Shown here in pieces: positions 3,997 through 30,755 of a DNA stretch of 33,943 nt. The position numbers and the translations under genes were made by a program. This DNA comes from Patescibacteria group bacterium (lineage in GTDB: Bacteria; Patescibacteriota; Gracilibacteria; UM-FILTER-43-11). The stretch lies in assembly GCA_018825145.1 (NCBI GenBank), contig JAHJFD010000035.1:1-33943 (forward strand), written 5' to 3'. The first letter of the stretch is position 1. Each line of letters starts with the position of its first letter. The notes under the pieces were generated by a model, which had not been told where the DNA came from, did no database searches, and saw only the letters and a program-made list of their open reading frames with translations.

Positions 3997-4122
3997 ATGA
4001 AGAAGATCAAAAAGATTACACTTGAAATTTGGGATGATTTGCTCAACCGGGTTGATGAAGCCGCCATAAAAGATGGTTTTAACAGCCGTTCAGAATTTTT
4101 GCGTTTTTTGATTGTGACTTAG
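3997..4122 (+). CDS. 41-residue ribbon-helix-helix (CopG/Arc-like) DNA-binding protein
   Basis: ATG at 3997 to TAG at 4120-4122 encodes 41 residues. The beta strand (KKITLEIW), first helix (DDLLNRVDEAAIKDG) and second helix starting at a Ser-rich turn (NSRSEFLRFL) fit the ribbon-helix-helix fold used by CopG/MetJ/Arc regulators, close to the minimum length for that fold. It would bind DNA as a dimer. The gene lies between A2 and a remnant of an A-type tail, upstream of the giant surface-protein promoter, so it may regulate the surface-protein genes; that is inference. No strong Shine-Dalgarno sequence is seen (AGAGATATAGCC precedes the start). Confidence 0.7.
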   Translation: MKKIKKITLEIWDDLLNRVDEAAIKDGFNSRSEFLRFLIVT

Positions 4123-4169
4123 CGGAAAAACAAATTACCAATTCTGCTCAGTAAAATACGTTCATTTAC

Positions 4170-14876: not shown

Positions 14877-16283
14877 CTAATTCGGCCGCACCTCCGTTCC
14901 ACCTGGGCCGTCTTTCACCATCCATTTGCCGGAAGCTTCGATTTTCTCGCGGATTTTATCGGCCTTTTTCCAGTCTTTAAGTTCCCTGGCCTCATTGCGT
15001 TCCAGAATCCATTGAGTGATCTGCGGCGGCAATTCAAATTCGATTGGCTCATTAAGCTTCAGGCCAAGTACGGTGTCCATTTTTTTGATCGTGGCCAGCT
15101 TATCCGCATCCGGCACTTCCGCGTCATCCACTAGCTCCCAGGCAATGGCCAGGCCCTGCGCGACATTCAGGTCATCGCTGACCGCCTCGGTAAAAGGCCC
15201 CATATAATTTTCAGCAAGACTTTCCTCGGAATCTCCAAGGGCAAGCACCTTTTCTTTCAGGCGCCTCAGTCCGGTCCTCGCGGCCGTCAGTCCTTCCCAG
15301 TCAAAAGCGAGTTCTTTGCGATAATGGGATTGCAGGCAAAAATACCGGTAATCCAGTGGATCATAACCCTCTTCCACAAGCCTTCTGAGCGTCAGAAAAT
15401 TACCCTCCGCCTTGGCCATCTTCGCGCCCTCTTTCAGCACCAGAAAATTTCCGTGCATCCAGATTTTCACCCAGGGCTTCTTGCCGGTCGCGCCCTCGGC
15501 CTGAGCAATCTCGTTGGTGTGGTGCACCGGAATATGATCGATGCCGCCGCAATGAATATCAAACTGCTCACCCAGATAACGCACACTCATCGCGGAGCAT
15601 TCAATATGCCAGCCGGGAAATCCGCGGCCCCAAGGTGCACCCCATTTTGCCGGATCCCACTGCATCTCCTGATCGCCGTGCTTGGACTCCACAAACCACA
15701 GAACGAAGTCATGCGGATTCTTTTTGTTCTCATCCACTTCTATGCGGGCGCCAGCCTCACCGCCGCGGAAGGGCTGTTTATCGAGTTGGGCCAGCTTTCC
15801 GTAGTCCTCAAACTTTGAAGTGTCACAATAAACGTTTCCGTTCTCGCCCACATAGGTGAATCCATTTGCCTCCAGCTTTTGAATCTGCCCGATCATTTCC
15901 TGAATATGGTCAGTAGCCTTAGGTTTCCAGTGTGGTTTCAGTAAATTCAGGCGATCCATATCCTCCAAAAAAGCCTGCGAATAATGCTCGGCAATTTCCC
16001 ACACGGTCTTTTTCTCGCGCTCGGCGCCTTTTTTCATTTTATCCTCGCCCTCATCCGCGTCGCTCGTCAGATGCCCAACGTCGGTAATATTCATCACATG
16101 ATTTACCACGTAACCATTAAATTCCAGCACGCGCCTGAGTAAATCTTCAAACACATAAGTCCGCAGATTCCCGATGTGCGCGTAGTTATAAACTGTGGGT
16201 CCGCAACAATAAAGCCCTACCCGATCAGGCTTTTCGGGGTTGAATTCTTCCTTTTGCCGGGTGAGTGTATTAAAAAGTTTCAT
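14877..16283 (-). CDS. cysS: Cysteinyl-tRNA synthetase
   Basis: 468 residues, the normal length. HIGN (36-39) is the class I HIGH motif; Cys27, Cys229, His254 and Glu258 have the spacing of the Zn-binding cysteine-recognition site. WHIECSAM and [13 protein letters not shown] are typical of CysRS. The KMSKS loop is KMAKA (288-292): both lysines are kept but both serines are replaced. It charges tRNA-Cys in the cytoplasm. An extended -10 lies upstream next to the palindromic element at 16361-16472, and the GT2 gene diverges from the other side of that element. Confidence 0.96.
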
Positions 16284-16336
16284 GATTCAGAAATTTCAGA
16301 CTTTTTTCACGGAATATTTTTTTCGCGTTCGCCAAA

Positions 16337-16345
16337 ATTCTAGCA
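16337..16345 (-). promoter_or_regulatory. Extended -10 promoter for cysS
   Basis: On the minus strand TGCTAGAAT is an extended -10 (TGnTAGAAT). The leader would be about 45 nt. It lies 15 nt from the left edge of the palindromic element. Confidence 0.5.
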
Positions 16346-16360
16346 AAAAAGGCGGGGGTG

Positions 16361-16472
16361 GGTATATACCTTTTGGGGTCAGGAATTCTGATGCACAAAC
16401 TTTGCACAGATATTGCACAAACTTTGCACAGATATTGCACAACAGAATTCTATACCTCCGGGAGGACACCCC
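16361..16472 (+). repeat. Palindromic element copy 1 with 22-bp tandem core
   Basis: About 112 bp. Near-inverted outer arms (CCTTTTGGGGTCAGGAATTC on the left; CAGAATTCTATACCTCCGGG on the right) surround two exact 22-bp tandem units at 16392-16413 and 16414-16435, plus a partial third. The units are built from repeated TTGCACA/TGCACAA words. It occupies the divergent intergenic region between cysS (-) and the GT2 gene (+). A second copy lies inverted at 21579-21691. It could be a small mobile palindromic element or a compound binding site. Confidence 0.8.
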
Positions 16473-16594
16473 AGGGTCTCCGGATTTATACCAAAAAAAG
16501 ACAATTTTTATACATGTCAAATTCGCGCAAACTACCTGGCACAGTCTTCTTTACGCAGTCTATTTTTCTGTCACGCCCTTCACGCGGTTTGCTG

Positions 16595-16600
16595 TATAAT
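16595..16600 (+). promoter_or_regulatory. -10 box placed for leaderless transcription of the GT2 gene
   Basis: TATAAT lies exactly 6 nt before the ATG at 16607, so transcription would begin at or next to the start codon. The -35 position has no good match. Confidence 0.6.
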
Positions 16601-16606
16601 TCCTGT

Positions 16607-17485
16607 ATGAAGTTATCAGTGATTATCCCCACACACAACCGCGCCGATATCCTTGAGCTCTGCCTCAACAAAATCACCCAGCAACAGGGTGTCGATTTTG
16701 AAGTGATTGTGGTCGATGATGGCTCCGAAGACCATACCGCCAAAGTCGTGGCAGGTTTTAAAGAGGTGATTTACATCAAACAAAAAGCCTCTCATCAGGG
16801 CACGGCGCGCAATAAAGGGGCTAAAAAAGCCACGGGCGACATTCTCGTCTTCATCGGCGATGACATCCTTGCCGAACCGGGTTTTCTTATGCAGCACGCG
16901 AATATCCACACTCTCAATCCGGGCGAAGAGGTGGTTGTTCTTGGTTACACCGCGTGGGATCCGTTTCTGGAAATCACGCCTTACATGGAATTCCTCGAAT
17001 CCTCCGGCTGGCAGTTCGCTTACTTCCTCCTACAGCCAGGCTTTACCGACCACCCCGAACCTTACAAATTTTTCTACACTTCTAACATTTCCCTCAAAAA
17101 ATCCCTTTTCGACAAAGAAAAATTCAGTACCAAATTCACTGAATACGGCTGGGAAGACATCGAACTTGGTTACCGTCTGTGGGCCAAACATGGCATGCGT
17201 CTTTACTACGAACCTGATGCTGTCGTTTTGCATCACCACACCATCTCCGAGTCTACCCTCGAAAAAAGAATGCAAACCGTGGGCCGTTCCGCCGTCACAT
17301 TCGAAAAACTCCAGCCCGACGTACAAGTAATCCCCCGGGGCGCCAAAGCCATTCTACTCAAATTCCTTGCGCAGCCTATCATTCTCGCTTTTATTCGCTT
17401 TTTTGGAGGAGTAAATAGCTATTACAAATTCAAATCCTGGCAGCAGTTTTTGGAAGGCGTAAAGGAAGCGACCGGAAAAAAATAA
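16607..17485 (+). CDS. Family 2 glycosyltransferase
   Basis: 292 residues from the ATG at 16607. The open frame runs further upstream, but only through the palindromic element, and IIPTHNR follows this ATG as in most GT2 proteins. GT-A fold motifs: VIIPTHNRA (~5-13), VVDDGS (~37-42), IGDD for metal and nucleotide-sugar binding (~83-86) and EDIELGYRL (the ED acceptor motif, ~182-190). A short hydrophobic patch near the C-terminus (ILLKFLAQPIILAFIRFF) may associate with the membrane. It probably adds a sugar to an envelope polysaccharide or lipid-linked glycan; the Wzy-like gene downstream fits that. Donor and acceptor are unknown. Confidence 0.9.
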   Translation: MKLSVIIPTHNRADILELCLNKITQQQGVDFEVIVVDDGSEDHTAKVVAGFKEVIYIKQKASHQGTARNKGAKKATGDILVFIGDDILAEPGFLMQHANIHTLNPGEEVVVLGYTAWDPFLEITPYMEFLESSGWQFAYFLLQPGFTDHPEPYKFFYTSNISLKKSLFDKEKFSTKFTEYGWEDIELGYRLWAKHGMRLYYEPDAVVLHHHTISESTLEKRMQTVGRSAVTFEKLQPDVQVIPRGAKAILLKFLAQPIILAFIRFFGGVNSYYKFKSWQQFLEGVKEATGKK

Positions 17486-17570
17486 ACAAAAGACCCGCCG
17501 TAATGGCGATGAAATTTGATTTGTAACGCGTTTTTCCGTAAAATAAATAACAACCGCGAAACAAAAAACC

Positions 17571-19046
17571 ATGAAAAAAAATACCATTCGAATCATCGCC
17601 GTACTTCTCATACTGATGGCGCCTCTTTTTCTGTCCGGCTGTAAAAAGAAGTGTCCCAAACCGACCGAAAACATTCCCGGCACCAGCACTTTCCGCGATG
17701 ACTGCCCTTATGAAGAGGCGACAACCGCCGGAACGGGCCAGAAAGTCCTCGACCTGTGGATCATCTACGACAACACCGACGCCTTCCGCGAGCAGGTTCA
17801 GGCCTTTCAGAGTAACTTTCCCGGCGTCCGGGTAAACGTGAAGAAATTCACTAACCTTCCGGAATATGAAGACCTGGTCATCAGTGAAATCGCCGAAGGT
17901 GAAGGTCCTGACGTCTTTATGGTTCACAATTCCTGGATGCCAAAGCATTTCAAAAAACTCTACCCGCTCCCTCTCGACCAGCCCATTGTCATGAATGCCG
18001 AACTTTTCCGCCAGACCTTCTTCCAGGCCGCGGCCAACGATCTCATCATCGACGAACAGGTATACGGCATGCCGCTGTCCATCGACAACCTCGCCGTCTT
18101 TTACAACAAACAGCACTTCAAAGACCTCATCGCCACCAGCGACAAGCCGGGCGCCTTATGGGAAGAAATCAAAGAGCAGACCACTGAACTCACCAAGCGC
18201 GACAACAGCCCCGAACGTTTCGCGCTTTCCGGAATGGCTTTAGGCCGGGCCGACAACATTTCCAGCGCGGTCGACATTCTTTACGCCCTCATGCTCGAAT
18301 ACGGCGTGCAGTTTTACGATGAAAAGGAAGAGCGGGCCACTTTCGCCACGGGCGGCGGGCTCACGGGCGACAATCCCGGCGTTCAGGCCCTCGAACTCTT
18401 TACCAGTTTCGGCCTGCCAAGTTACCGCAATTACAGCTGGAATGAATACATCACCGGCTACTCCCCCGCCGAAAAGGAAATCAATCCCTTTGTCCGCGGC
18501 AAGGTCAGCATGATCATCGGCTATCCTTACCTTTATGGCGAAATTCAGACGGCCATTCAGGAACAGCAAAAATCCGGAGGCCAGCACATCGATATCGAAA
18601 ATGTGGGTATTACCTCTTTCCCCCAGCTGGTCAGCGGCACCGAGGCCACCAAACGCGACACTTACGCCAGTTACTTCCCGCTTGTCGTGGCCCGCACCAC
18701 CGACATGCCGGCCGAGGCCTGGTCACTCGTCCAGTTTCTCACCAGCTCAGACGCGCTCCAGACCTACCACAAAATCACCAACCGGCCCACCAGCCGAAAA
18801 GACATGGTTTCCGAACAGCAAACCGAACCTCTCTTCGGCACTTTCGCCTTTCAGGCGCCCTTTGCCAAAAGCTTTAAAATCTACGATGACGCCGCCTATC
18901 GAAAGGTCTTCACCGACGCCATTCAGGATGTGATGAAGAATGTGTCCAGCGCCCAGCAGGCGCTCACTGCCGCCCAGCAAAAAATCACCTGTGTCGTGCA
19001 GAAAGAAAAAGAGCTGATTGATATAGGAACCGATTGCGGCATTTAA
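17571..19046 (+). CDS. Extracellular solute-binding lipoprotein (ABC sugar-binding type)
   Basis: 491 residues. A lipoprotein signal peptide ends in the lipobox LSGC with Cys24 as the predicted lipidated residue; lspA at 24132 would process it. The mature part resembles family 1 solute-binding proteins: LDLWIIYDNTDAF near the start, EGEGPDVFMVHNSW, YGMPLSIDNLAVFYNK, KGKVSMIIGYPY-like region and AEAWSLVQFLTSSD. It would capture a sugar or oligosaccharide at the cell surface. No permease or ATPase gene lies nearby; instead it sits between a glycosyltransferase and a Wzy-like gene, 12 nt before the latter, so it may deliver or sense glycans. Cysteines at 28 and 41 and a Cys pair near the C-terminus are unusual for the family. 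Confidence 0.88.
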   Translation: MKKNTIRIIAVLLILMAPLFLSGCKKKCPKPTENIPGTSTFRDDCPYEEATTAGTGQKVLDLWIIYDNTDAFREQVQAFQSNFPGVRVNVKKFTNLPEYEDLVISEIAEGEGPDVFMVHNSWMPKHFKKLYPLPLDQPIVMNAELFRQTFFQAAANDLIIDEQVYGMPLSIDNLAVFYNKQHFKDLIATSDKPGALWEEIKEQTTELTKRDNSPERFALSGMALGRADNISSAVDILYALMLEYGVQFYDEKEERATFATGGGLTGDNPGVQALELFTSFGLPSYRNYSWNEYITGYSPAEKEINPFVRGKVSMIIGYPYLYGEIQTAIQEQQKSGGQHIDIENVGITSFPQLVSGTEATKRDTYASYFPLVVARTTDMPAEAWSLVQFLTSSDALQTYHKITNRPTSRKDMVSEQQTEPLFGTFAFQAPFAKSFKIYDDAAYRKVFTDAIQDVMKNVSSAQQALTAAQQKITCVVQKEKELIDIGTDCGI

Positions 19047-19057
19047 CCGGGTAGCCA

Positions 19058-20305
19058 ATGAACCGACTCATTCGGACACTTTGGAAAATCTTCCTCTTCA
19101 CCTTCCCTTTTTCCGTCCATTTTGTCTTATACGAGCAAAACAGTTACCGCTTTGGCAATTTCAGCACCTGGGTCACCGGATTTTTGTTTTTGCCCGAACT
19201 TCTGCTGATACTTACTTTCATCCTTTGGGTCATTCAGAAAATCAAAAACAAAGAACTCGGCAAACTCAAAACGCCCGGCTGGGGTCTCGCTCTTTTTCTC
19301 CTGTTCATGGTGAACGCGGGAGTTGTAACTTTTTTGCGGGGTGACATGATGCTTTATCTTTTCTTCCTTATCCGCGTGCTTGAGGCCGGGGCGGTGTACG
19401 TGCTGATTCGCCAAAAACTCGTTCCTCACAACGAACTCATTACCTGGCTTTTATATGGCGCGGTATTCCAGATTATTCTGGCTTACATTCAAACCCGCCT
19501 TAATCACTCGGTCGGTCTTACCTTTATCGGCGAACAGGTCATTGGCCCGGGGGTGCCGAACGTGGCCAAAACCGACCTGGCGGATGGCTCTAAACTCATT
19601 CGCCCTTACGGCACTTTTCTGCACCCCAACATTCTGGGCGTCTATCTGCTAACAATTTTCTTCCTCAGTCTTGCCTATCTCAAAAAAACCGCCCTGCTTT
19701 TCTGGGTGATTCTCATGTCGGTCGGCATATACCTCACGGGCTCTCAGGCGGCTCAGCTTACCCTGCTCATTACGGTTGGTATCCTGCTGGTTCTCAGTTT
19801 TATCAAAGTGGCTACCCAAAAAAGGGCCCTCTCCATTGGACTGTTGGGCCTCATTTTTTTCGGAAATCTGTGGATTTACATAAACAGTGCCTCTCTCGCC
19901 TGGGACTACCCCTCAATTCAGGAACGCCTTCTGCAGAACGTCATCAGTATCAACATGTTCCTGCACAAATTCTGGGGCGTAGGTGTGGGTAATTTTACGC
20001 TGATGATGGAACAGTTTTCCAAAACCAAACTTCTGCCCTGGGAATTCCAGCCGGTCCACAACACTTATTTTCTGATTCTCAACGAAACCGGCATTCAGGG
20101 GCTTATCATCCTGATTCTCATCATCGCTTACCTCCTGCATGGTTACTGGAAAACGGGCCTGAGTTACTTTCTGCGTGACAAAGCCCGAGTCCTGCCCCTC
20201 TTCGCGCTCATTGTGGTCGCTTCCTTCGATCACCTGCTGTGGACAAGCTGGGTCGGGCCTATTCTGGCCGGAATGGTGGTAGCCGAAACCACCCGATCCG
20301 CGTGA
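19058..20305 (+). CDS. O-antigen ligase/polymerase-like (Wzy/WaaL) membrane protein
   Basis: 415 residues with about ten predicted transmembrane helices. The long loop near residues 165-195 (GVPNVAKTDLADGSKLIRPYGTFLHPNILG) and the later HNTYFLILNETGIQGL motif are hallmarks of the Wzy_C/O-antigen ligase superfamily, where Arg and His residues in periplasmic loops act on lipid-linked glycans. It would polymerise or transfer a glycan at the outer face of the membrane. It begins 12 nt after the solute-binding lipoprotein gene, so the two are probably co-transcribed. The final residues (ETTRSA) lie in GC-rich sequence that forms a hairpin over the stop codon. Confidence 0.88.
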   Translation: MNRLIRTLWKIFLFTFPFSVHFVLYEQNSYRFGNFSTWVTGFLFLPELLLILTFILWVIQKIKNKELGKLKTPGWGLALFLLFMVNAGVVTFLRGDMMLYLFFLIRVLEAGAVYVLIRQKLVPHNELITWLLYGAVFQIILAYIQTRLNHSVGLTFIGEQVIGPGVPNVAKTDLADGSKLIRPYGTFLHPNILGVYLLTIFFLSLAYLKKTALLFWVILMSVGIYLTGSQAAQLTLLITVGILLVLSFIKVATQKRALSIGLLGLIFFGNLWIYINSASLAWDYPSIQERLLQNVISINMFLHKFWGVGVGNFTLMMEQFSKTKLLPWEFQPVHNTYFLILNETGIQGLIILILIIAYLLHGYWKTGLSYFLRDKARVLPLFALIVVASFDHLLWTSWVGPILAGMVVAETTRSA

Positions 20306-20319
20306 AGCAGATCAGGTGG
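20289..20319. terminator. Hairpin over the Wzy-like stop codon
   Basis: CCACCCGATC (20289-20298) and GATCAGGTGG (20310-20319) pair at 9 of 10 positions around an 11-nt loop containing the TGA. On the minus strand it is followed by TTTCGG. It may stop transcription of the GC-rich minus-strand gene; the lack of a T run makes this uncertain. Confidence 0.4.
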
Positions 20320-20341
20320 TCGTCGGGTGTGGTCACGATGG

Positions 20342-21349
20342 TCAGCCGGGCCCCTCTTGCGAGGGCACGGGCTCTGATGGTGCCGGCCTGTTCAGGATGG
20401 CGTCCAGCCCCTGAAGGTCGATCTCCTTGCCACTGGAATCCGAAAATCCACGGGCGAGGAACCAGAAGTTGATTTGCAGGTTTGGGGCCTCTTTGACCAC
20501 GATCGAAAAGAGCGCCTTGCTTTTGGGTTTTGGGACCCCTGCATCGGCGCCGCCTTCCTTCTGCTTCTCGACTTCTTTCGAAGTGATGAAGTAGACGAGA
20601 AGCATAGGCCGCTTCTTTATCGTGGGCTCCGCCGACTTGGACTCCTCGCCCTTTTTGTTGCCTTTCTTGCCCTTGTCGTCCTCAGGAGGCGGCGGTGGCG
20701 GAATGACCTCCGTCACCTCCACGCTCTCGAAAATGATGAGAGTAAATTTCTCTCCTTTTTCGAGCGCGGCGGAATGGTAGGGTGAAAGCCTGTCGGCTTC
20801 GACCCCAATCATTCGGGCCGCAGCCAGAATGGCCCCGCGGATGCGGCCGCCATCTTCACCATCCGGGTCCATCTGCTTTAGCAGCTTCTGGCCCTTCTGG
20901 TCGAAGATTTTGGGGTCTACATTCCAGTCGTAGTAGACCCGGGGCGGATCCATCAGCCGGTTGTAGTCGGCGAAGAACATCTTGCCGTAGTAAGTGAATA
21001 CCCACGGCGCGGCGAACGGGCCGACCAATAGCAGAAGCACAAGCTTCTTTTTGTGCTTCCCTGCCAGGGTCAGAGCCCCCTCCTTGCCCTTGCTCTTGTA
21101 GTAGAGCAGGGCGATGCCCACGATGGCCAGCATGGTACTGAGCACCCGCCAGTCCACCACATTGGAGCGGTGGAGCAGATACACTGCCACCACCGTTACC
21201 GGCACGAGAAACGCCATTTTGTGGCGCCTGACGAAGTCCACTGCCCTGACGAACAACATTTCGTCATCGCCATCAGGCTCGGCGCCTGAATAAGGGTCCA
21301 GGTGTTTTTCGCCCGAAGGCGGCACGGAATTTCCGGTATTTTGACTCAT
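20342..21349 (-). CDS. GC-rich membrane protein of unknown function, probably foreign
   Basis: 335 residues from the ATG at 21349, which is preceded by a textbook AGGAGG seven nt upstream; native genes here lack such a site. It has about three hydrophobic helices (~MAFLVPVTVVAVYLL, VLSTMLAIVGIALLYY, KLVLLLLVGPFAAPWVF), then a soluble region with YYDWNVDPKIFDQKG and a low-complexity linker (six Pro, then Lys/Gly/Glu-rich), and a Pro-rich C-terminus. No known domain recognised. GC content and third-codon GC are far above those of the flanking genes. The gene faces the Wzy-like gene and is bounded by inverted GTGACCACACC-type sequences. Horizontal acquisition or an assembly artefact are both possible. 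Confidence 0.75.
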   Translation of the reverse strand: MSQNTGNSVPPSGEKHLDPYSGAEPDGDDEMLFVRAVDFVRRHKMAFLVPVTVVAVYLLHRSNVVDWRVLSTMLAIVGIALLYYKSKGKEGALTLAGKHKKKLVLLLLVGPFAAPWVFTYYGKMFFADYNRLMDPPRVYYDWNVDPKIFDQKGQKLLKQMDPDGEDGGRIRGAILAAARMIGVEADRLSPYHSAALEKGEKFTLIIFESVEVTEVIPPPPPPEDDKGKKGNKKGEESKSAEPTIKKRPMLLVYFITSKEVEKQKEGGADAGVPKPKSKALFSIVVKEAPNLQINFWFLARGFSDSSGKEIDLQGLDAILNRPAPSEPVPSQEGPG

Positions 21350-21385
21350 GGATACGCCTCCTGGGCGAATAGTTTTGGGTTTGGG

Positions 21386-21466
21386 TTGATTGTGACCACA
21401 CCGAGTGATCACAAGTCGCCCCCCGCCTTGGCGGGGGAAACTAATGACACGATGAGTCACAATCAA
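21386..21466. promoter_or_regulatory. Long inverted repeat upstream of the GC-rich gene
   Basis: TTGATTGTGAC (21386-21396) and GTCACAATCAA (21456-21466) are perfect 11-bp inverted arms enclosing a second hairpin (CCCCGCC TT GGCGGGG at about 21421-21436). It lies 37-117 nt upstream of the start at 21349 and may be an operator, a leader structure or the end of an inserted segment. Confidence 0.5.
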
Positions 21467-21578
21467 AAATATGATTTCAAAGAGCAGGGGCTGATTAAAA
21501 TACTACATTTCCAGTTTTGAGTCAATTGGATTGACACAGAACCTAAGAATGATAATGTCATATAATTTTGAGACCTCC

Positions 21579-21691
21579 GGCATATACCCTTCCGGGGTAG
21601 AAAATTCTATTGCACATACTTTGTGCAAGATCTGTGCAAACTTTGTGCAAGATCTGTGCAACAGAATTCCGCACCTCAAAAAGGGTACCCC
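21579..21691 (-). repeat. Palindromic element copy 2, inverted relative to copy 1
   Basis: About 113 bp. On the minus strand it reads TACCCTTTTTGAGGTGCGG, GAATTCTG, then TTGCACAGATCTTGCACAAA-type units, then AGAATTTTCTACCCCGGAAGG, matching copy 1 (16361-16472) from end to end. Two exact 22-bp tandem units lie at 21618-21639 and 21640-21661. Like copy 1 it sits in a divergent intergenic region, between the GC-rich gene (-) and the tsaE-HD gene (+). Confidence 0.78.
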
Positions 21692-21779
21692 GGCTCCCGC
21701 CCCTACCGCGTTTCAGAAATTGCCCCCCGGCTCCCGCCCCTACCGCGTTTCAGAAATTGCCCCCCGGCTCCCGCCCCTG
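21688..21779. repeat. 37-bp GC-rich tandem repeat, 2.5 copies
   Basis: CCCCCGGCTCCCGCCCCTAC plus CGCGTTTCAGAAATTGC repeats at a 37-bp period (GGCTCCC at 21692, 21729 and 21766). The two full copies are identical; the third is cut short and ends in CTGCCG. It lies between the right edge of palindromic copy 2 and the tsaE-HD promoter. Confidence 0.9.
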
Positions 21780-21822
21780 CCGTATTTTTTGCGATAACCT
21801 CGCCACTTTTTTACGCATCAGT

Positions 21823-21828
21823 TATAAT
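21823..21828 (+). promoter_or_regulatory. -10 box for the tsaE-HD gene
   Basis: TATAAT lies 10 nt before the ATG at 21839, leaving a leader of only a few nt. No good -35 is seen 16-18 nt upstream. Confidence 0.5.
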
Positions 21829-21838
21829 TTCCGTTGCC

Positions 21839-22897
21839 ATGAAAACAATTTACCAAACCAAAACCCCTGAAAAGACCATCGAACTCGGAATCCAGCTGGC
21901 CGCCCGCCTGAAACCGGGCGCCACAGTCCTGCTTTTTGGCGATCTTGGCAGTGGTAAAACCCAGTTCACCAAAGGTATCGCCAAGGGTCTGGGCATCAGC
22001 GAACTGATCAAAAGCCCCACTTTCACCTACGTCAACAAATACGATCTTCAGACCGGCCCGCAGACAGGCCCTCACTTCTATCACTACGACTTATACCGCC
22101 TCAAACACGGCGAAGACTATGAATCCATCGGCCTTGAAGAGACCATGCACGATGACCGCTCCATCAACGTCATCGAATGGGCCGACCGCATGGCTGGCAG
22201 GCACCCCGCAACTTATATCCGCGTGGATTTCCATTCGCTGGCCGACCACCACAAAATAATCTTTCAATTTGAAGACTCCGAAATCGTCCCCGATGAACTC
22301 GTCGATAAATTCTGGCGGGACTGGGTTACCCCTCTGCACGTCCGCGCTCACAGTAAAAAAGTCACCGACGTATGCCTGCAAATTGGTCAGGCTCTTGCCG
22401 ACAAGAATATCCTCGTCAACCTCAGCCTCCTCAATACCGCCGGCCTGCTTCACGATATGGCCAGGGTTTGCGATTTTACTGAACTCAACCGCGACAAATT
22501 CCATGAAGAAGTCACCGATGATAAGTGGACTAAATGGCTAGACTTACAAAAACAATTCAAAGGAATGAATCACGCCGATGTAGCCTGCGGAGCGCTGGCA
22601 GATGATGGTTACAACAAAACCGCCGAACTCGTCCGTCTGCACAACTCCCTGTCTATTTTGGAAGAACCCGAAAAATTCGCTTACCTCGAAGTGGCCATTC
22701 TCTTCTATGCCGACAAACGCGTCAAACACGATGAAATAGTAAGCCTTGCCGAGCGCTTCCGTGACGGCCGCGAGCGCCATGGAAAATTTGATAATCTCAA
22801 GACCCAAACCATGTTTGAGGAAGTGGAAAAAAGAACTTTTGAACTTGAGAAACAGCTATTTGCCCTTATTTCCATAAAGCCGGAAGACATAAGTTAG
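21839..22897 (+). CDS. tsaE: TsaE (t6A biosynthesis ATPase) fused to an HD-domain hydrolase
   Basis: 352 residues from the ATG at 21839. The open frame continues upstream, but only through the repeats, and the TsaE fold starts at this Met. Residues 1-150 are TsaE: Walker A GDLGSGKT (34-41), SPTFTYV (~60-66), HYDLYRL and VIEWADRM. TsaE helps TsaB/TsaD make N6-threonylcarbamoyl-adenosine on ANN-decoding tRNAs. Residues ~170-345 form an HD-type metal phosphohydrolase: HVRAHSKKV, AGLLHDMAR with the HD pair, MNHADVACG and YADKRVKHDEIVSLAERF. Bacterial TsaE is normally ~150 residues alone, so this is a fusion. No other t6A gene is visible here. The hydrolase substrate, perhaps a nucleotide, is unknown. 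Confidence 0.9.
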   Translation: MKTIYQTKTPEKTIELGIQLAARLKPGATVLLFGDLGSGKTQFTKGIAKGLGISELIKSPTFTYVNKYDLQTGPQTGPHFYHYDLYRLKHGEDYESIGLEETMHDDRSINVIEWADRMAGRHPATYIRVDFHSLADHHKIIFQFEDSEIVPDELVDKFWRDWVTPLHVRAHSKKVTDVCLQIGQALADKNILVNLSLLNTAGLLHDMARVCDFTELNRDKFHEEVTDDKWTKWLDLQKQFKGMNHADVACGALADDGYNKTAELVRLHNSLSILEEPEKFAYLEVAILFYADKRVKHDEIVSLAERFRDGRERHGKFDNLKTQTMFEEVEKRTFELEKQLFALISIKPEDIS

Positions 22898-30117: not shown

Positions 30118-30185
30118 TTGAGGTGAGAGAAAAAATATCACTATCGTTTTGATATTTAAGAATCAAAAATCTGATACCTCCAACC

Positions 30186-30262
30186 ACACTCCAACCACAC
30201 TCCCCCCACACTCCCCCCACACTCCCCCCACACTCCCCCCACACTCCCCCCACACTCCCCCG
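30186..30262 (+). repeat. 11-bp minisatellite, seven units, G4-capable on the minus strand
   Basis: ACACTCCCCCC recurs at 30186, 30197, 30208, 30219, 30230, 30241 and 30252 with exact 11-bp spacing; the first unit has CCAACC. The opposite strand carries five or more runs of five to six G separated by AGTGT, which meets the pattern for a G-quadruplex. Confidence 0.92.
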
Positions 30263-30398
30263 CACCACTTGCAAAACTTACACATAACTGCACATCTCAA
30301 TGTATAGTCATCGCTACCTATATGGTGCAAAATTGCGAGTGACTTCAGGGTGCATACCCCGGGGTGGCAGTTTGCCGATTCTTCTTATGACATTTTTC
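30263..30398. repeat. Degenerate relative of the palindromic element
   Basis: TTGCAAAACTTACACATAAC followed by TGCACATC resembles the tandem core of copies 1 and 2 with small gaps. Downstream, GGGTGCATACCCCGGGGTGG resembles the outer arms. GCACCA near 30263 and TGGTGC near 30322 form inverted arms. The match is weaker than between copies 1 and 2. Confidence 0.35.
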
Positions 30399-30473: not shown

Positions 30474-30755
30474 ATGAAGAGAATGTTATTTCATATTTCC
30501 GATCAATTGGCTGATCAAATCGAGGAGGCCATTGAGCGCTGGGGTTTTGTGAATAAGCCCGAGTTTTTTCGCTATTCGGCCATTGAATTCCTGCGAAACG
30601 ACGCACGCCTTATGCCCGCCGATGAGACCCTGAAGGAACACGCCAAAGCTATTCGAAGGGTGCATGCGCATAAGTCCATCCGGGAACATCGCATGGCTTG
30701 GTACAAAAAAGAGAACGAGGACGAGAGCGAAAGAAAGGTACATCTTTATCGTTAG
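30474..30755 (+). CDS. Ribbon-helix-helix-type regulator
   Basis: 93 residues from the ATG at 30474; a TTG 12 nt upstream is a less likely start. MLFHISDQLADQIEEAIERW then NKPEFFRYSAIEFL has the strand-helix-turn-helix pattern of RHH proteins, followed by a charged helical tail rich in Lys, Arg and His (AIRRVHAHKSIREHRM). It would bind DNA as a dimer. It has its own promoter, lies next to the degenerate palindromic element and precedes the ECF sigma gene by 55 nt. Whether its targets are these nearby sites is unknown. Confidence 0.72.
   Translation: MKRMLFHISDQLADQIEEAIERWGFVNKPEFFRYSAIEFLRNDARLMPADETLKEHAKAIRRVHAHKSIREHRMAWYKKENEDESERKVHLYR

What the first reader, a model, noticed from the sequence alone, without database searches (positions are those of the whole stretch)
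16361..21691. Two inverted ~112-bp palindromic elements bracket a 5.1-kb glycan gene cassette
Copy 1 (16361-16472) and copy 2 (21579-21691) match end to end when one is reverse-complemented: outer arms, GAATTCTG/CAGAATTC inner arms and a 22-bp tandem core. They enclose the GT2, solute-binding lipoprotein and Wzy-like genes and the GC-rich gene. Inverted copies at both edges suggest either a non-autonomous transposon family (MITE or REP-like) that can mobilise or invert the cassette, or paired regulatory sites. No transposase is visible in the window.
Basis: partly seen in the sequence, partly recalled or inferred. Interest (0 to 1): 0.8.

Follow-up and report, generated by a model that had tools for sequence, protein, structure and literature searches.

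The report
Palindromic docking arrays for DNA-binding protein
The two ~112-bp repeats belong to a family of about a dozen near-palindromic intergenic elements per genome in three related Patescibacteria, each holding (usually five) short words 11 bp apart, and they are likely docking arrays for a small predicted ribbon-helix-helix protein encoded beside one of them; the word differs between the species together with one predicted DNA-contact residue of that protein.

Summary
The repeats are real, but 'inverted' is empty: each copy is its own near-palindrome, so the pair is 81/115 alike direct and 80/114 inverted. They are two of 13 classified copies in this genome (13 in G001, 11 in G002). 34 of 37 hold five word slots at 11-bp spacing between conserved arms ATTCTGATG/CATCAGAAT. 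At least 8 of 13 sites are occupied at the orthologous spacer in a congener, and the GT2-SBP-Wzy cassette has the same order in G002 with no element matched there. So the elements do not look like carriers of the cassette. Copy 2 is a likely gain at tsaE. In all three genomes one copy is centred 130-148 bp upstream of a 76-77-aa predicted ribbon-helix-helix (RHH) gene; several RHH paralogues have other 11-bp arrays upstream. The unit is TTGYRCAA where predicted contact residue 7 is Phe (G001, most of G000) and TGGYRCCA where it is Arg (G002). Cores are homogenised within G001 and G002, in either orientation. Best reading: dispersed, autoregulatory operator arrays of an RHH regulator whose DNA word was rewritten genome-wide. 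Neighbours include comEC and dprA; a DNA-uptake regulon is untested.

The parts
16351..16480 (.). Element copy 1, between cysS (start 16283, -) and the GT2 gene (start 16607, +)
   Evidence: element upstream of cysS also in G001:C78
16391..16442 (.). Core of copy 1: five units (ATGCACAA, TTGCACAG, TTGCACAA, TTGCACAG, TTGCACAA) at 11-bp spacing, TTG type
16383..16390 (+). Left inner arm GAATTCTG of copy 1
16443..16450 (-). Right inner arm CAGAATTC of copy 1
21570..21697 (.). Element copy 2, between the GC-rich gene (start 21349, -) and tsaE (start 21839, +; name by eye); likely gain in G000
21610..21661 (.). Core of copy 2: five units (TTGCACAT, TTGTGCAA, CTGTGCAA, TTGTGCAA, CTGTGCAA) at 11-bp spacing, TTG type
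21662..21669 (-). Right inner arm CAGAATTC of copy 2 (left arm 21602-21609 reads AAATTCTA)
30474..30755 (+). Paralogous predicted ribbon-helix-helix protein (MKRMLFHISDQL...), not the presumed cognate one, which is G000:C47:43956-44186 on another contig
30167..30272 (.). Different 11-bp tandem array (CTCCAACCACA/CTCCCCCCACA) upstream of the RHH paralogue
16607..20305 (+). GT2 (16607-17485), solute-binding lipoprotein (17571-19046), Wzy_C/O-antigen ligase (19058-20305): syntenic in G002, so not evidently element cargo

Best explanation
[quoted passage not shown] Shown: each window copy is a near-palindrome; in 34 of 37 elements the arms enclose five 8-bp word slots at 11-bp spacing (mostly TNG-YR-CNA; G000:C34 is degenerate); words and whole cores occur in either orientation; at least 8 of 13 sites are shared between species; one array sits just upstream of the rhh gene in all three genomes. 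Inferred: RHH dimers bind each word on one face of the helix and line up along the array, repressing or tuning promoters nearby, including their own. Inferred from three genomes: when contact residue 7 changed between Arg and Phe, the word changed (TGGYRCCA versus TTGYRCAA), and new cores spread from site to site by copying across the palindromic arms, in either orientation. A role in DNA uptake and surface genes (comEC, dprA, a T4SS-pilin operon, Wzy) is a weaker, untested inference.
For: Dispersed family and fixed register (34 of 37 five-unit, one 4-unit, two 3-unit). Orthologous sites: at least 8 of 13 G000 sites. rhh start 130-148 bp from an array centre in 3 of 3 genomes. RHH assignment: a profile of 14 family members hits NikR (2bj1, E = 6.5e-6; 1q5v, E = 0.073, profile 1-37 on residues 1-37); 7 of 14 match Pfam RHH_1 at E <= 0.1, best 2.5e-7. 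11-bp arrays within 300 bp upstream of 9 of 19 RHH genes at empirical P <= 0.02 against 299 control ORFs, versus 0-3 of 19 for each other period from 8 to 15 (19 of the 21 matches were tested). The nine fall into five groups: the cognate trio, a second trio of orthologues (by eye), the window paralogue, G001:C78 and G017:C74, which is in another genus. Word versus residue 7: G001 12 of 13 TTG type (Phe), G002 11 of 11 TGG type (Arg), G000 9 of 13 TTG (Phe). In 25 homologues (P0001-P0025) residues 3 (R) and 5 (H) never vary while residue 7 is F 11, Y 2, R 9, K 3, and residue 4 is V with F/Y and I with R/K in 25 of 25. AmrZ precedent: K18, V20, R22 read bases, half-site GGC (PMC3325190, passages). 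Plasmid RHH protein omega binds direct and inverted repeats comparably, at sites overlapping promoters (PMC5016525, passages). 11 of 13 G000 arrays lie within about 215 bp of a facing start codon (for C66 the start is an inferred GTG).
Against: No binding data. The cognate RHH itself scores below Pfam's cut-off (12 against 20.5 bits) and its own 24-row profile finds NikR only at E = 0.32; the AlphaFold monomer is weak (pLDDT 71.8) with a helix where the strand should be, and Foldseek gives NikR only at E > 1. Contact positions come from alignment ranges and recalled NikR biology, not from a complex. The residue-7/word association rests on three genomes and two states. Four of 13 G000 arrays (one degenerate) and one of 13 G001 arrays are TGG type despite Phe7. 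Two G000 arrays (C17, C24) lie between convergent genes, odd for operators. Ten of 19 RHH genes show no 11-bp array at that cut-off. The outer arms and the strong hairpin are not explained by RHH binding. By AmrZ analogy residue 7 might read the central base pair and not base 2. Two arm-sharing copies (C31, C37) have another core.
Confidence: 0.7

Rival explanations
1. A MITE or REPIN-like non-autonomous mobile element: the arms are terminal repeats used by a transposase in trans, and the 11-bp array is a minisatellite passenger, as in the P. gingivalis BrickBuilt MITE.
For: Near-palindromic ends, intergenic, about a dozen copies, a likely lineage-specific gain at tsaE, within-genome homogenised cores, arm-sharing copies with another core (C31, C37). 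BrickBuilt (PMC4596501, abstract) is an intergenic MITE with a 23-bp tandem core.
Against: At least 8 of 13 sites are shared between species whose flanking proteins are mostly about 65-90% identical; no clear target-site duplication at tsaE; the 11-bp register is kept through word changes and in the 3- and 4-unit copies; strong matches only within the genus among the genomes sampled. Transposases were not searched for.
Confidence: 0.2
2. Chromosome-organising or centromere-like sites: the RHH protein is a nucleoid or segregation factor (ParR/CdbA-like) and the arrays are its anchors, with little effect on transcription.
For: Convergent-gene sites C17 and C24, conserved positions, no ParB_N match in 3 of 3 genus genomes; CdbA is an RHH nucleoid protein (PMC7156744, passages); ParR and omega use repeat arrays (PMC5016525, passages).
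Against: ParB_N is also unmatched in most relatives (found in 13 of 78), so its absence is not tied to the elements; 11 of 13 G000 arrays sit near a facing start codon; no ParM-like partner was sought; replicon position could not be mapped on draft contigs.
Confidence: 0.2
3. The word difference between species is drift plus gene conversion of a repeat and is unrelated to the RHH residue change.
For: Cores are plainly copied between sites; only two states in three genomes; the tree of homologues is unresolved.
Against: The array beside rhh carries the genome's main word in 3 of 3 genomes; three further RHH genes that look orthologous (G000:C44, G001:C56, G002:C30) also differ at contact columns (TSV, VST, TST) and in their arrays, while the G000:C42/G001:C36 pair with like residues (K,I,D and K,I,E) shares a 33-nt upstream stretch unchanged.
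Confidence: 0.25
4. DnaA-box clusters (datA/DARS-like).
For: Arrays upstream of dnaN (named by eye) in G000:C44 and G001:C99 also run at 11 bp and one includes TTTTGCACA.
Against: G002 uses TGGCGCCA, unlike the DnaA box as recalled (TTATCCACA); words are near-palindromic; the two dnaN arrays lack the arms. The dnaN array of G002 was not examined.
Confidence: 0.04

Closest known systems
RHH operator/centromere arrays of plasmids (ParR-parC of R1/pSK41; omega-parS of pSM19035)
   Same: Small RHH protein, repeated words, array upstream of its own gene, direct and inverted words both used by omega (PMC5016525, passages; the 11-bp R1 repeat length is recalled)
   Different: About a dozen arrays scattered over a chromosome, each framed by an imperfect palindrome; no motor protein linked; word differs between species
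AmrZ / NikR / MetJ type RHH regulators
   Same: Predicted contact residues at strand positions 3, 5, 7; palindromic half-sites (GGC in AmrZ and within the G002 word); autoregulation (AmrZ: PMC3325190, passages; MetJ recalled)
   Different: Five-word arrays at one-turn spacing, palindromic arms, copy-like spread of cores
CdbA of Myxococcus xanthus
   Same: RHH protein with many chromosomal sites (PMC7156744, passages)
   Different: More than 500 sites with moderate specificity against about a dozen arrays
BrickBuilt MITE of P. gingivalis
   Same: Intergenic, inverted-repeat ends around a tandem-repeat core, 19 copies (PMC4596501, abstract)
   Different: 23-bp unit; here most resolved sites are shared across species and an array stands next to a putative regulator gene
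REPINs (RAYT-mobilised REP doublets)
   Same: Palindromic, intergenic, populations within a genome (PMC3116915 and PMC8049555, search listing; details recalled)
   Different: About 13 copies, long-lived orthologous sites, phased core; RAYT not searched

Membership tests
RHH DNA-binding protein (the presumed cognate factor) | Sequence-profile relation to known RHH domains | tested here: met
   Family profile A3 (cognate plus paralogues) hits NikR at 6.5e-6; 7 of 14 members match RHH_1 at E <= 0.1; the cognate protein alone is below cut-off and its own profile reaches only E = 0.32
RHH DNA-binding protein (the presumed cognate factor) | Strand-helix-helix dimer fold | tested here: inconclusive
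   Monomer model has helices 4-23 and 28-41 and no strand; Foldseek: NikR only at E > 1
RHH operator array | Specific binding of the RHH protein to the array | not testable with these tools
   Needs EMSA/footprinting
RHH operator array | Phased words, array upstream of the regulator gene | tested here: met
   Five slots at 11-bp spacing in 34 of 37; array next to rhh in 3 of 3 genomes
ParMRC-type partition system | Motor gene (ParM) in an operon with the RHH gene | tested here: inconclusive
   In G000 rhh stands alone on its strand between dprA (Pfam) and a 344-aa gene that was not scanned; ParM not sought genome-wide
MITE | Terminal inverted repeats | tested here: met
   Imperfect palindromic arms; less clear outer arms in G002
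MITE | Target-site duplication / clean empty site | tested here: inconclusive
   tsaE spacer without element in G001 and G002, no clear duplication
MITE | Related autonomous element with transposase | not tested
   No transposase search was run
REPIN/RAYT | RAYT (Y1 transposase) in the genome | not tested
DnaA-box cluster | Words match DnaA boxes | tested here: not met
   G002 words are TGGCGCCA against the recalled box TTATCCACA; by eye
Rfam RNA element | Match over gathering score | tested here: not met
   Window 16000-22200: one hit, mir-2778, 24.8 against 86 bits

The most novel reading that the evidence does not exclude
A bacterial regulon caught in the act of changing its DNA alphabet: one contact residue of an RHH regulator of DNA uptake toggles between aromatic (Phe/Tyr) and basic (Arg/Lys), and its dozen operator arrays are overwritten genome-wide by copy-and-paste of a master core through palindromic arms, in either orientation, with laggard sites still spelling the old word.
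Probability: 0.3. Interest if true: 0.85.

Novelty: new variant of a known kind. Interest (0 to 1): 0.62.

Why it matters
How a transcription factor and all its sites change specificity without breaking the regulon is a long-standing question. Here are orthologous sites in three species with different words, laggards included, one candidate residue, and about two dozen natural protein variants that make the idea directly testable. It also gives a candidate dispersed regulator in Patescibacteria, with comEC and dprA among the genes beside its presumed sites. A genetic system for Patescibacteria exists (PMC10633639, search listing; that it rests on natural DNA uptake is recalled). Two searches of the open library (Patescibacteria + ribbon-helix-helix, 2 papers; RHH + coevolution + binding site + specificity + orthologs, 2 papers) listed nothing on this subject, judging by titles and abstract starts.

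Tried and rejected
Cassette mobilisation: rejected, since G002 has the same gene order with no element matched. Rfam and plasmids: nothing that stands. MraZ idea: weak 11-bp arrays upstream of rsmH (by eye) in G012 and G074 suggested MraZ; dropped for the RHH gene beside the array, but MraZ was not searched for. DnaA boxes: see rivals. Integron attC: considered from memory only, no test. ParB-replacement idea: ParB_N unmatched in the genus but also in most relatives. The first background for periodicity was contaminated by the elements themselves and was redone with them masked. The tree of RHH homologues is unresolved (bootstrap trees need 7-10 changes of residue-7 class, no better than shuffled labels, and one origin is not formally excluded). 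Rows dropped: before the counts, G000 C53, C44, C31, C37 and G001 C99 (other words or arms only); G002 C23 and C4 hits were never fetched, G009:C62 and G011 of the 21 matches; P0024 from the tree and from A5.
Full report
Observation. The strongest shared part is 41 nt at 93%. However, each copy is a near-palindrome (72 of 116 and 70 of 114 alignment columns equal its own reverse complement), and the pair is equally alike direct (81/115) and inverted (80/114). 'Inverted copies' therefore carries no information. Both window copies fold beyond shuffles as DNA (z -3.83 each) and as RNA on both strands (z -3.87 to -5.46).

A dispersed family. BLAST with each copy finds further copies on other contigs of the same genome. 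A sequence-only covariance model of 18 copies and one of 33 copies find the family in all three genomes of the genus. I classified 37 elements: 13 in G000, 13 in G001 (which matches OFTM208, JAJDCF, 'Patescibacteria group bacterium') and 11 in G002. 34 have five word slots at 11 bp, one has four and two have three, so lengths differ by whole units; one five-slot copy (G000:C34) has degenerate words. In 18 family genomes, matches at E <= 0.01 are the three genus members plus G006 and G012 at 0.009 and 0.0042; in 145 class genomes, at E <= 0.001, the three plus G023, G074 and G094 at 3.6e-6 or weaker. Two of the weak hits, in G012 and G074, lie upstream of rsmH (gene named by eye).

Architecture. 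The core word is an 8-bp near-palindrome T-T/G-G-Y-R-C-A/C-A. Inner arms ATTCTGATG and CATCAGAAT are the best-kept flanks. Further out, GGGTATACC-like sequence recurs, less clearly in G002. Two G000 sites (C31, C37) share arms but have another core.

Sites are old. For 8 of 13 G000 elements (C17, C26, C39, C40, C41a, C47, C64, C66) an element sits beside orthologous genes in G001, G002 or both, the proteins mostly about 65-90% identical. One more pair (G001:C53 and G002:C5) is shared by those two. C41b is a likely gain: the GC-rich gene to tsaE spacer is 489 bp in G000 against 204 and 218 bp, and the extra DNA lies between sequence resembling a -35 and a -10 (promoter reading by eye). The other four sites were not resolved. 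In G002 the cysS-GT2 spacer keeps arm-like sequence without the array. The cassette order is the same in G002; in G001 the genes are split over two contigs, with one extra gene between the element and GT2 (alkD by eye) and another between GT2 and the SBP gene.

The trans-factor. At site C47/C91/C9 a 76-77-aa gene starts 130-148 bp from the array centre in all three genomes. The family profile matches NikR's RHH domain (E = 6.5e-6) and 7 of 14 members match RHH_1 at E <= 0.1; alone the cognate protein falls below Pfam's cut-off and the profile of its close homologues reaches NikR only at E = 0.32. The monomer fold is inconclusive. Of 19 RHH genes tested (of 21 matches), 9 have an 11-bp array within 300 bp upstream at empirical P <= 0.02 against 299 control ORFs; each other period from 8 to 15 gives 0 to 3. 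The nine are five groups, two of them trios of orthologues. Arrays of different paralogues use different words, for example ATTGAYCC before the G000:C44 gene and TATATAATTCA before the G017:C74 gene.

Word and residue. The profile aligns with NikR 1q5v 1-37 on 1-37 (ranges only), which would put residues 3, 5, 7 on the DNA face (contact roles recalled for NikR, read for AmrZ). They are R-H-F in G000 and G001 and R-H-R in G002. Inner units with T..A at positions 2/7: 36 of 38 in G001, 25 of 39 in G000, 0 of 29 in G002; with G..C: 2, 10 and 27. Centres are CG in 19 of 29 in G002 and 1 of 38 in G001. Laggards: G000 C66, C39, C26 and C34 and G001 C89 are TGG type. At the four of these with a G002 counterpart (C66, C39, C26, and C89 whose G000 partner is C40) G002 also has TGG, so TGG is the likelier ancestral word. 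Among 25 homologues residue 7 is F, Y, R or K while residues 3 and 5 never vary. Attributing the base change to residue 7 is inference, and AmrZ suggests it may read the central pair.

Homogenisation. In G001, 9 of 12 five-unit cores are one haplotype within 2 substitutions (6 forward, 3 reverse-complemented) and 3 are a second. In G002, 8 of 9 are one haplotype within 4 substitutions (6 forward, 2 reversed). G000 was not tested in this way and looks more mixed. Copying between sites, in either orientation, is the simplest account; gene conversion guided by the palindromic arms and re-insertion are both possible.

What it may control. Eleven of 13 G000 arrays lie within about 215 bp of a facing start codon (for C66 an inferred GTG); two (C17, C24) are convergent. 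Neighbours include ComEC (PF03772), DprA (PF02481), a VirB6/TrbL gene followed by a T4SS pilin, Wzy_C genes, a PolX-like polymerase, a DHH-family protein, pgk, cysS and tsaE (the last three by eye), but also NadA (convergent), an M23 peptidase (convergent) and an Ig/fn3 protein. G002 has arrays at the same two sites: its dprA starts 182 bp away, its comEC 504 bp away with a short reading frame between. A DNA-uptake and surface regulon is suggested, but post hoc and without an enrichment test.

Verdict. Probably not a mobile cassette. Most likely dispersed operator arrays of an autoregulated RHH protein (0.70). The exciting part is the apparent genome-wide rewriting of the word together with one contact residue; it rests on three genomes and needs the upstream DNA of the metagenomic homologues.

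Noticed in passing
window 30167-30272 and 30474-30755: An 11-bp tandem array (CTCCAACCACA/CTCCCCCCACA, about eight units) upstream of an RHH paralogue in the window itself.
   Followed up: partly
window 4006-4131: A second RHH-like reading frame in the window with one TAG inside; a similar gene in G001 (C78:5050-5322) has no stop and has a CCCCGTAGAAT-type 11-bp array upstream.
   Followed up: partly
window 20342-21349: GC-rich gene (0.578 against 0.48 for the window) with no Pfam hit, at the same place in all three species but only about 23-34% identical: unusually fast evolving beside well-kept neighbours.
   Followed up: partly
window 21669-21787: Three tandem copies at 37-bp spacing (CCCCGGCTCCCGCCCC...) directly beside element copy 2, absent from the congeners' tsaE spacer.
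   Followed up: no
G000:C44 ~15372 (L140) and G001:C99 ~1055 (L154): 11-bp arrays of DnaA-box-like words upstream of dnaN (by eye), differing in word between the two species; likely oriC.
   Followed up: partly
G000:C31 ~8530 (L138) and C37 ~20413 (L139): Two elements with the same arms but an unrelated, mutually similar core, suggesting that the arms can frame other cores.
   Followed up: partly
G010 (L038, L040, L042): A different repeat with paired GGTGGGTATATACTT-like ends in another genus of the family (58 first-look candidates).
   Followed up: no
G012:C105 (L169) and G074:C90 (L196): 11-bp arrays of GTGCA-type words upstream of rsmH (by eye), possibly MraZ boxes.
   Followed up: no
G000, G001, G002: No ParB_N match in the genus and in only 13 of 78 relatives searched.
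   Followed up: partly
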